Assembly (NCBI RefSeq): GCF_000382225.1
Contig: NZ_KB907811.1
Coordinates: 1-64,000, forward strand
DNA from: Hymenobacter aerophilus DSM 13606
GTDB lineage: Bacteria > Bacteroidota > Bacteroidia > Cytophagales > Hymenobacteraceae
Direction of reading: 5' to 3'
DNA: 64,000 nt
Shown here in pieces: positions 55,088 through 58,040 of this stretch. The notes beneath the pieces were generated by a model, which had not been told where the DNA came from, made no database searches, and worked only from the letters and a program-made list of their open reading frames with translations. The first letter of the stretch is position 1, and every line of letters starts with the position of its first letter. Made by a program: the position numbers and the translations under genes.

Positions 55088-56035
55088 ATGTCCCTCTGCC
55101 TCGTCATCGACGATATGCACCCCAGCCTGCCCGAGTACCTGGCGCCGCTGGGCCTCACGCTGCACTACCGCCCCGACCTGACGGCCGCCGAAGTGCCCGC
55201 CGCCCTGGCCGCCCACCCCTACGAGGGGCTGATGGTGCGCTCCAAGCTGCGCATCACGCGCGAGCTGCTGGCCCACGGCCCGCAGCTGCGCTACGTGGCC
55301 CGCGCCGGCGCCGGAGTCGATAATGTGGATGAGCAGGCCCTGGCCGATGCGGGCATCACGCTGCTCAACGCCCCCGAAGGCAACCGCGACGCGGTGGGCG
55401 AGTACGCGGTGGGGCTGCTGCTGGCGCTGCTGCGCAACATTGTGCGGGCCGATGCCGAGGTGCGCGTCGGGCAGTGGCGCCGCGAGGCCAACCGGGGCGA
55501 GGAGCTGGGCGGCAAAACCGTGGGCCTGCTCGGCTACGGGCACATGGGCCGCGCCTTTGCCCGCCGCCTCAGCGCGTTCGGCTGCATTGTGCTGGCCCAC
55601 GACCACGACCCCGCCTGCCTGCCCGACGAGAATGCCACGCTCGTGCCGCTGGCCGAGCTGCAGGCCCGGGCCGAAGTGCTGAGCCTGCACATTCCGTACT
55701 CGCCGGCCAACCACCATGTTGTCAACGAGGAGTTCCTGGCCGGTTTTGCCAACGCCATCTGGCTGCTGAACACGGCCCGCGGCGAAGTGCTCGACCACGC
55801 CGCGATGGTCAGCCGCCTGCGCACCGGCCAGGTGCGCGGTGCGGCCCTCGATGTGCTCGAAAACGAAAAACTGGCCGGCCTCAGCCCCGAGCAGCAGGCC
55901 CGCTTCGATTACCTGCGCACTGCGCCCAACGTCGTGCTGGCGCCCCACATTGGCGGCTGGAGCTTCCAGAGCTACGAGCGCATCAATGCGGTGCTGGCCC
56001 GCAAGCTGGCGGCGTTTCTGGGGGTGGGGGAGTGA
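55088..56035 (+). CDS. D-2-hydroxyacid dehydrogenase (SerA-like)
   Basis: A 315-residue NAD-dependent dehydrogenase. Rossmann motif LLGYGHMGRAFARRL, catalytic Arg in LNTARGEVLDH, Glu in the DVLENEK block and catalytic His in LAPHIGGWSFQS are all visible. It lacks the ACT domain of full-length SerA. 3-Phosphoglycerate dehydrogenase is the likeliest role, but a related hydroxyacid is possible. Its last bases lead straight into gtgaggag repeats. Confidence 0.87.
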   Translation: MSLCLVIDDMHPSLPEYLAPLGLTLHYRPDLTAAEVPAALAAHPYEGLMVRSKLRITRELLAHGPQLRYVARAGAGVDNVDEQALADAGITLLNAPEGNRDAVGEYAVGLLLALLRNIVRADAEVRVGQWRREANRGEELGGKTVGLLGYGHMGRAFARRLSAFGCIVLAHDHDPACLPDENATLVPLAELQARAEVLSLHIPYSPANHHVVNEEFLAGFANAIWLLNTARGEVLDHAAMVSRLRTGQVRGAALDVLENEKLAGLSPEQQARFDYLRTAPNVVLAPHIGGWSFQSYERINAVLARKLAAFLGVGE

Positions 56036-56250
56036 GGAGGTGAGGAGGTGATAAGATTGTCATTCTGAGCGGAGCGCAGCGGAGTCGAAGAATCTCGCGT
56101 GCCACAGTAATTTCTGACGACCGGATTACCATTGCCCGCGAGATTCTTCGCGCTGCTCAGAATGACAGTTCTCTTTTGTTCGACTTCCCACCTCCTCACC
56201 TCCTCACCTCCTCACCCCATCACCTCCTCACCCCATCACCCCATTACCCT
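56034..56250. repeat. Palindromic element F with 8-bp-unit flanks
   Basis: The core arms 56059-56103 and 56134-56166 carry the shared motif; the left arm has an extra block (gcagcggagt) missing from the right, so it is the least symmetric copy. The outer flanks are inverted tandem units: gtgaggag at 56034-56050 and acctcctc/accccatc at 56190-56250 (about seven units). Confidence 0.82.
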
Positions 56251-56264
56251 TTCCCCGATTTTCG

Positions 56265-56272
56265 TATATTTG
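56265..56272 (+). promoter_or_regulatory. Promoter box of greA
   Basis: TATATTTG, exact TAnnTTTG, 77 nt upstream of the greA ATG. Transcription would start near 56277, just before the leader hairpin. Confidence 0.5.
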
Positions 56273-56288
56273 CCTGCACCTACCAAGG

Positions 56289-56330
56289 GGAGAACGGCCA
56301 GCCACGCTGGCCGTTCTCCTTATTTTTTTG
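56289..56330 (+). promoter_or_regulatory. Terminator-like hairpin in the greA leader (possible attenuator)
   Basis: A perfect 14-bp stem (ggagaacggccagc 56289-56302 with 56306-56319) with a cac loop is followed at once by ttattttttt. This is a strong intrinsic terminator by form, placed between the promoter box and the greA start, so many transcripts should end here. Confidence 0.75.
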
Positions 56331-56349
56331 AGCTAATCCCACCCATGTC

Positions 56350-56823
56350 ATGTCAACTGTCAACTACTACACGCCCGAAGGTCTGCAGAAGCTCAAAACC
56401 GAGCTCCAGGACCTCAAAATCCGGGGTCGGGCCAAGGCCGCCGACGACCTGCGCGAAGCCCGCGACAAGGGCGACCTGAGCGAAAACGCCGAGTACGACG
56501 CCGCCAAGGACGCGCAGGGCCTGCTGGAGCTCAAAATTGCCAAGCTGGAAGAGGTGCTGGGCAACGCCCGCCTGCTCGACGAAACCAACCTCGACCTGAG
56601 CAAAGTGCTCATTATGAGCAAAGTGAAGCTCAAAAACCTCAAGAACAACATGGTGCTCGACTACACGCTGGTAGCCGAGGAGGAGGCCAACCTGGCCGCC
56701 GGCAAAATCTCCGTGAAGTCGCCCATCGGCAAAGGCCTGCTGGGTAAGTCGGTGGGCGAAACGGCCGAAATAACGGTGCCCGCCGGCAAGCTGCAGTTCC
56801 AGGTACTCGAAATCAGCCGTTAA
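56350..56823 (+). CDS. greA: Transcription elongation factor GreA
   Basis: A 157-residue GreA with an N-terminal coiled coil whose tip carries the acidic pair in EARDKGDLSENAEYDAAKD, needed to make RNA polymerase cleave backtracked RNA, and a C-terminal FKBP-like domain (SPIGKGLLGKSVGETAEI). Length normal. Preceded by a terminator-like hairpin that GreA itself could influence. Confidence 0.97.
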   Translation: MSTVNYYTPEGLQKLKTELQDLKIRGRAKAADDLREARDKGDLSENAEYDAAKDAQGLLELKIAKLEEVLGNARLLDETNLDLSKVLIMSKVKLKNLKNNMVLDYTLVAEEEANLAAGKISVKSPIGKGLLGKSVGETAEITVPAGKLQFQVLEISR

Positions 56824-56824
56824 A

Positions 56825-57055
56825 GTGAAATGGCGAGGTGGTGAAATGGTGAGTAACCGTTTCGGCACTTTGATTTATTTGAAAAGGGCGGGGCTGCGGC
56901 TTCGCCCTTTTGCGTTTGGGCCCGTACTTTGGAGCGGCTACCGGGGCTGCCCGGCGTTGGGCGCGGCGGCAGCGCATCGTTGTTTTGCCCGCCTCCAGCC
57001 GTGCCGTCAGGCCTTTTGAGCGTCAACTCACCATTTCACCACCTCACCATTTCAC
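56825..57055. repeat. Inverted heptad/octad arms around the greA/HIT gap
   Basis: Arms 56825-56853 and 57027-57055, 29 bp each, are inverted copies with one mismatch (units of gtgaaat, ggtgagg). One starts 2 bp after the greA stop; the other ends 3 bp before the HIT start. The greA terminator lies between them. Confidence 0.88.
56882..56911 (+). terminator. greA terminator
   Basis: A 9-bp stem (aaaagggcg 56882-56890 with cgccctttt 56903-56911). Confidence 0.65.
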
Positions 57056-57058
57056 CTC

Positions 57059-57989: not shown

Positions 57990-58040
57990 TACAAACGGCC
58001 TGTGGGCCTGAGTTACGCTCAGGCTCACAGGCCGTTTGTA
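57990..58040. terminator. Bidirectional terminator between HIT-NuiA and AI-2E genes
   Basis: A 23-bp stem with one mismatch (57990-58012 with 58018-58040) and a 5-nt loop, between convergent genes, with T/A-rich ends. Confidence 0.82.

What the first reader, a model, noticed from the sequence alone, without database searches (positions are those of the whole stretch)
56265..56350. Terminator-like hairpin in the greA leader: possible GreA feedback and a small RNA
A TATATTTG promoter box is followed within about 15 nt by a perfect 14-bp hairpin with a T run, then greA 20 nt later. In E. coli the greA leader also has an internal terminator that yields the GraL small RNAs. If transcription often stops here, the leader would form a short stable RNA, and GreA, which affects pausing, could tune its own read-through. 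The same logic in Bacteroidota would be convergent.
Basis: partly seen in the sequence, partly recalled or inferred. Interest (0 to 1): 0.62.

Follow-up and report, generated by a model that had tools for sequence, protein, structure and literature searches.

The report
Conserved greA leader terminator in Bacteroidota
A short stop-signal hairpin sits between the promoter and the start of the gene for GreA, a helper of stalled RNA polymerase, and the same arrangement recurs in most of the related bacteria sampled, so it probably limits how much GreA is made, much as in E. coli.

Summary
A TATATTTG box (56265-56272) is followed 16 nt later by a perfect 14-bp inverted repeat with a 3-nt loop (56289-56319), a T run (to 56329) and, 20 nt on, greA (56350).

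It is neither chance nor local. All 112 distinct leaders collected from the family carry GAACGG...CCGTTC with a T-rich tail; inner pairs covary, the outer six never change. Of 161 other Bacteroidota leaders, 139 have a terminator-like hairpin, with clade-specific sequences. In 30 genomes of 15 families, greA scores 26 of 30, against 3, 2 and 2 of 30 for recA, ksgA and lepA. Where the upstream gene appears divergent, the hairpin is usually still there, so it is not just that gene's terminator.

Best reading: an intrinsic terminator in the greA leader that releases an RNA of roughly 35-50 nt and lets a fraction of polymerases through, as E. coli GraL does. No antiterminator is conserved, so tuning would act on the polymerase. 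GreA feedback is plausible (both catalytic acids are present) but untested. greA-leader terminators are published for Proteobacteria, bacilli and clostridia; I found no report for Bacteroidota.

The parts
56265..56272 (+). TATATTTG, predicted -7 promoter box (TAnnTTTG)
   Evidence: An exact box lies within 35 nt upstream of GAACGG in 74 of 112 family leaders, with at most one mismatch in 102 of 112.
56273..56288 (+). predicted transcription start region and short 5' head of the leader (start near 56277, inferred from box geometry that is recalled, not measured)
   Evidence: Head plus 5' arm alone fold at only -1.9 kcal/mol in the window copy, so no antiterminator is seen.
56287..56321 (+). terminator-like hairpin; perfect 14-bp arms 56289-56302 and 56306-56319, loop 56303-56305; invariant core GAACGG/CCGTTC
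   Evidence: conservation and covariation.
56320..56329 (+). T tract TTATTTTTTT
   Evidence: T-rich tail after CCGTTC in the family leaders.
56330..56349 (+). 20-nt spacer between T tract and greA start
   Evidence: no exact promoter box between hairpin and ATG in 112 family leaders.
56350..56823 (+). greA, 157 aa, with D42 and E45 matching E. coli D41 and E44
   Evidence: NCBIfam; alignment with E. coli GreA, 36% identity.

Best explanation
The hairpin and T tract are a promoter-proximal intrinsic terminator inside the greA leader. RNA polymerase starts a few bases after the TATATTTG box and makes the hairpin almost at once. In some fraction of rounds it releases an RNA of about 50 nt; the rest read through and make greA mRNA, so the terminator sets GreA supply. 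There is little room for, and no conserved, competing antiterminator fold, so the read-through fraction most likely depends on the state of the polymerase (pausing, backtracking, GreA or other secondary-channel factors). Negative feedback by GreA, as in E. coli, is the tuning I think most likely (about 0.4 on its own). Shown here: leader position, terminator anatomy, covariation, recurrence in the phylum, specificity to greA. Inferred: the start site, actual termination, the short RNA and the feedback. The confidence given is for partial termination in the leader.
For: All 112 distinct family leaders hold GAACGG-N10..16-CCGTTC and score as terminators on the sense strand, against 22 of 112 antisense and 45 of 560 shuffles; other Bacteroidota 139 of 161 against 28 of 161 antisense and 24 of 805 shuffles. 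In 30 genomes of 15 families greA 26 of 30, recA 3, ksgA 2, lepA 2 of 30. Hairpin plus box (at most one mismatch) just upstream: 206 of 273 greA leaders against 20 of 394 other leaders; exact box 149 against 2. Inner pairs 1-3 vary and stay paired in all 56 distinct hairpins tabulated. In 41 family genomes the full motif occurs at 35 places, 33 of them just upstream of greA (coordinates). 60 of 69 non-family loci with a divergent upstream ORF keep a hairpin. The scorer recovers the known E. coli greA leader terminator. GreA here has the two acids needed for E. coli autoregulation or cleavage (PMC6829880).
Against: No expression data: start site, stop site and RNA are all predicted. 22 of 161 non-family leaders do not score, some by the strictness of the scorer, some with no visible hairpin. 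In part of the family the box is degenerate: 10 of 112 leaders have two mismatches. Terminator-like hairpins also occur upstream of 88 of 394 other ORFs in the same loci. Leaders within a clade are related, so counts are not independent. The invariant outer six pairs are more than pairing alone needs. One genus (L005, L153-L158, L160) has a 5' head that could pair with the 5' arm at about -8 kcal/mol, an antiterminator-like fold.
Confidence: 0.78

Rival explanations
1. It is the plain 3' terminator (or an insulator) of the upstream co-directional gene, which ends at 56035, and greA is made from a promoter downstream of it or by read-through.
For: The upstream gene is co-directional here and by a crude ORF test in 91 of 112 family loci. 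Two other AGAACGG palindromes of this genome lie 3' of genes. The window's own T tract holds TATTTTTT, one base from the box consensus.
Against: A promoter box sits upstream of the hairpin. In 60 of 69 non-family loci with a divergent upstream ORF the hairpin is still there. No exact box between hairpin and ATG in 112 leaders, 10 with one mismatch.
Confidence: 0.1
2. It is a 5' hairpin that protects the greA mRNA from decay or tunes translation, not a terminator.
For: The hairpin is very stable and starts close to the predicted 5' end.
Against: The T tract is conserved and one-sided, which stability alone does not need. The hairpin ends about 30 nt or more before the ATG, so it does not cover the start.
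Confidence: 0.07
3. The repeat is a DNA operator bound by a repressor at the start of greA.
For: The outer arms GAACGG and CCGTTC are invariant in 112 of 112 family leaders.
Against: The distance between the arms varies from 10 to 16 nt. Inner pairs change together and include U-G and G-U wobbles that break a DNA palindrome but keep an RNA stem. Other clades use unrelated sequences.
Confidence: 0.05

Closest known systems
E. coli greA leader terminator and GraL RNAs (PMC6829880: outline, introduction, part 1 of results and discussion read; Potrykus 2010 known only through it)
   Same: Intrinsic terminator between greA promoter and greA; predicted short RNA of similar size (family median 50 nt, GraL 37-59 nt); little sequence before the stem; the GreA acids are present.
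   Different: No shared hairpin sequence was noticed. The E. coli hairpin ends 102 nt before the ATG, here about 30 nt. Termination, trans action and GreA feedback are shown in E. coli, not here.
greA- and rnk-leaders of Naville and Gautheret 2010 (PMC2965389, passages)
   Same: Predicted premature terminators upstream of greA-family genes, in Proteobacteria, bacilli and clostridia.
   Different: They report a clear antiterminator in each case; none is conserved here. Bacteroid- and Flavobacter- words do not occur in that paper's main text.
Structured 5' regions of Flavobacterium psychrophilum (PMC9723704, passages)
   Same: Leader structures in Bacteroidota, some thought to act by attenuation.
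   Different: The passages name pheA, hisG, ftsY, acsA, alaS and rimP, not greA. Its Table S7 of 64 cases could not be read, so greA may be listed there.

Membership tests
greA-leader terminators (E. coli GraL kind) | intrinsic-terminator hairpin with T tract upstream of greA on the coding strand | tested here: met
greA-leader terminators (E. coli GraL kind) | greA promoter lies upstream of the hairpin | tested here: inconclusive
   Conserved -7 box upstream and no exact box downstream, but no mapped start.
greA-leader terminators (E. coli GraL kind) | partial termination that yields a short RNA | not testable with these tools
   Needs RNA data.
greA-leader terminators (E. coli GraL kind) | GreA with catalytic acids raises termination and lowers greA expression | not testable with these tools
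   Only the presence of D42 and E45 was checked.
greA-leaders with antiterminator (PMC2965389) | competing antiterminator fold | tested here: not met
   Head plus 5' arm fold at -5 kcal/mol or lower in 22 of 112 family leaders; -1.9 in the window copy. Possible in one genus only.
any Rfam family | covariance-model match at gathering score | tested here: not met
   Window 55900-56900: only matches below gathering scores. Ten greA loci from several clades: 0 matches.

The most novel reading that the evidence does not exclude
Most Bacteroidota carry a minimal GreA feedback device: a terminator made within the first 35-50 nt of the greA transcript, without an antiterminator, read directly by the polymerase and GreA. 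In the Cytophagales the stem core (AACGG/CCGTT) is held constant while the rest of the stem changes, because the polymerase, GreA or a partner factor recognises it, or because the released RNA acts in trans.
Probability: 0.3. Interest if true: 0.72.

Novelty: new member of a known kind. Interest (0 to 1): 0.55.

Why it matters
If true, leader termination of greA is used in at least three large bacterial groups with unlike hairpins, which points to a shared need to cap or sense GreA. The Bacteroidota version has almost nothing but the terminator, so it is a clean template for the open E. coli question of how GreA raises termination at its own leader, seen in vivo but not in a defined in vitro system (PMC6829880). 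The natural variants listed here could be used in that test.

Tried and rejected
Rfam on the window region gave only matches below gathering scores, to unrelated families; ten greA loci gave none. A conserved antiterminator was sought and not found, except possibly in one genus. A second promoter between hairpin and ATG was sought: 0 of 112 exact, 10 of 112 with one mismatch. Two Gre-like paralogues of this genome had no scoring hairpin in the 200 nt upstream of the ORF start chosen. The '-' strand match is the palindrome itself.

Flawed versions: mishandled control loci, so recA, ksgA and lepA counts come only. The greA count of 26 of 30 uses three same-genus stand-ins (L238, L233, L236); four leaders did not score (L227, L235, L205, L231). 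The pattern was mis-spaced (the window copy has an 11-nt gap, 4-10 were allowed), so its zero says nothing.

Rows dropped: of 163 non-family loci, two (L030, L054) had under 150 nt upstream, leaving 161. Family loci were made distinct by their last 120 nt, leaving 112. In one search four spacing classes were tabulated, 109 of 112 leaders, 56 distinct hairpins.

Paper searches. Word-start searches also match 'great', so searches are noisy. The whole-word searches listed 1, 16 and 14 papers, and no title or abstract start is about a Bacteroidota greA leader. PMC10994844 and PMC2864571 were seen in passages only and gave nothing on greA. Supplementary files and most subscription papers were not searched.

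Full report
What is there. The nearest named greA relatives are Hymenobacter (L003-L005, 86-89% identity); the window lies in an unnamed 4.25-Mb genome. greA (56350-56823) is preceded by TATATTTG at 56265-56272, a perfect 14-bp inverted repeat at 56289-56319 with a 3-nt loop, and TTATTTTTTT at 56320-56329. The product passes NCBIfam GreA cut-offs. The stretch 56277-56360 folds at -31 kcal/mol, better than all 200 shuffles. The simple scan gives the hairpin 16 pairs. My scorer ranks it second of 8 separate hits of 36 or more on the + strand of the window.

Conservation in the family. greA loci of genus and family were collected, giving 112 distinct leaders. All 112 hold GAACGG-N10..16-CCGTTC and all 112 score as terminator-like on the sense strand, against 22 of 112 on the antisense strand and 45 of 560 dinucleotide shuffles. 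In the four spacing classes tabulated (56 distinct hairpins, 109 of the 112 leaders) the six outer pairs never vary. Inner pairs 1-3 vary among T-A, C-G, A-T, G-C and wobble forms and are paired in every hairpin. Pair 4 is less regular outside the largest class (13 of 17, 5 of 9 and 5 of 6). The best box lies 15-20 nt before GAACGG in 73 leaders (all exact), 5-9 nt in 31 (mostly one or two mismatches), 14 nt in 4 and 35 nt in 4. So the constant core goes with the hairpin, not with its distance from the promoter.

Specific to greA. In 41 family genomes the pattern AGAACGG-N3..22-CCGTTCTYYTTNTTT gave 35 places in 33 genomes, and the reversed pattern none. Compared with the greA coordinates, 33 of the 35 lie just upstream of greA; the other two are one palindrome read both ways in genome G092. 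Eight genomes had no exact match; the tail pattern is strict. In this genome two more AGAACGG palindromes lie 3' of other genes, so this stem also serves at ordinary gene ends.

Across the phylum. All 148 genomes sampled have greA. I read leaders from 88 of the 146 that are outside the genus: 28 best matches and 60 fetched one per further genus, plus 75 named loci. Two were too short, leaving 161. Of these 139 score, against 28 of 161 antisense and 24 of 805 shuffles. At stricter cut-offs 28 and 32 the greA counts are 127 and 93 of 161. The 22 that do not score are listed; by eye a few (for example L027, L082, L258) still show a hairpin, which I did not count. Sequences are clade-specific: AAATCCCGT..ATGGGATTT in Flavobacterium, AAGACTATGTAG..ATGTAGTCTT in Pedobacter-like genomes, CAACGC..GCGTTG in another group. 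AACGG..CCGTT occurs in 17 of 161, against 2 of 394 control leaders and 6 of 5460 shuffles; 15 of the 17 are Cytophagales by record name (placing recalled) or listed as the same order, and two (L272, L286) look like chance.

Controls. Leaders of 394 other ORFs in the same loci and the window score in 88 cases; the ORFs were called mechanically, and real 3' terminators of neighbours may be among the hits. The cleaner control takes 30 genomes of 30 genera and 15 families: greA 26 of 30 (with three same-genus stand-ins), recA 3, ksgA 2, lepA 2 of 30. With a box of at most one mismatch just upstream, greA gives 206 of 273 against 20 of 394; with an exact box 149 against 2. The scorer finds the E. 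coli K-12 greA leader terminator, ending 102 nt before its ATG. Leaders within clades are related, so these are not independent trials.

Not the upstream gene's terminator. Judged by the longest ORF in the 900 nt upstream, which is crude in GC-rich genomes, 60 of 69 non-family loci with a divergent upstream ORF keep a hairpin; in the family 21 of 112 appear divergent and 91 co-directional. No exact box lies between hairpin and ATG in 112 family leaders, 10 have one with a mismatch.

Mechanism. If transcription starts about 4 nt after the box (geometry recalled, not measured), the terminated RNA would be about 50 nt in the family (39-65) and about 36 nt in the 104 other leaders with a box. E. 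coli GraL RNAs are 37-59 nt, about two thirds of transcripts stop there, and GreA raises GraL and lowers greA in vivo, needing D41, though not in a defined in vitro system (PMC6829880, sections read). The matching residues D42 and E45 are present. Naville and Gautheret report antiterminators in the greA-leaders they describe (PMC2965389, passages); here the head plus 5' arm folds at -5 kcal/mol or lower in only 22 of 112, mainly not including the window copy at -1.9, though one genus has a fold of about -8. I therefore infer that the polymerase itself, with GreA, is the sensor.

Novelty. greA-leader attenuators are a known kind. I found no report for Bacteroidota, within an open-licence library. 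Table S7 of PMC9723704 might hold the Flavobacterium case and could not be read. New here are the recurrence in the phylum, the lack of a conserved antiterminator and the invariant stem core, which pairing alone does not explain.

Noticed in passing
56021-56252: Between the upstream gene and the greA promoter lie 8-nt repeats (CACCTCCT and variants, seven registers found) facing inverted copies at 56020-56055, around an inner inverted repeat whose ends are TGTCATTCTGAGC and GCTCAGAATGACA (56058-56167); it looks like a small mobile or repeat element.
   Followed up: partly
56829-57057: Similar short repeats (GGTGAAATGG and its complement) flank the greA to HIT-gene gap.
   Followed up: no
57992-58038: A strong two-way terminator-like hairpin between the converging HIT-family gene and a gene on the other strand.
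   Followed up: no
56345: An out-of-frame ATG lies 5 nt before the greA start; three close relatives (L084-L086) show it too.
   Followed up: no
L005, L153-L158, L160: In one genus the leader head CCTGTTC can pair with GAACGG at about -8 kcal/mol, a possible antiterminator.
   Followed up: partly
L243, L245, L247, L248, L265: Another set of genomes shares a different greA leader stem core, AACGC..GCGTT.
   Followed up: no
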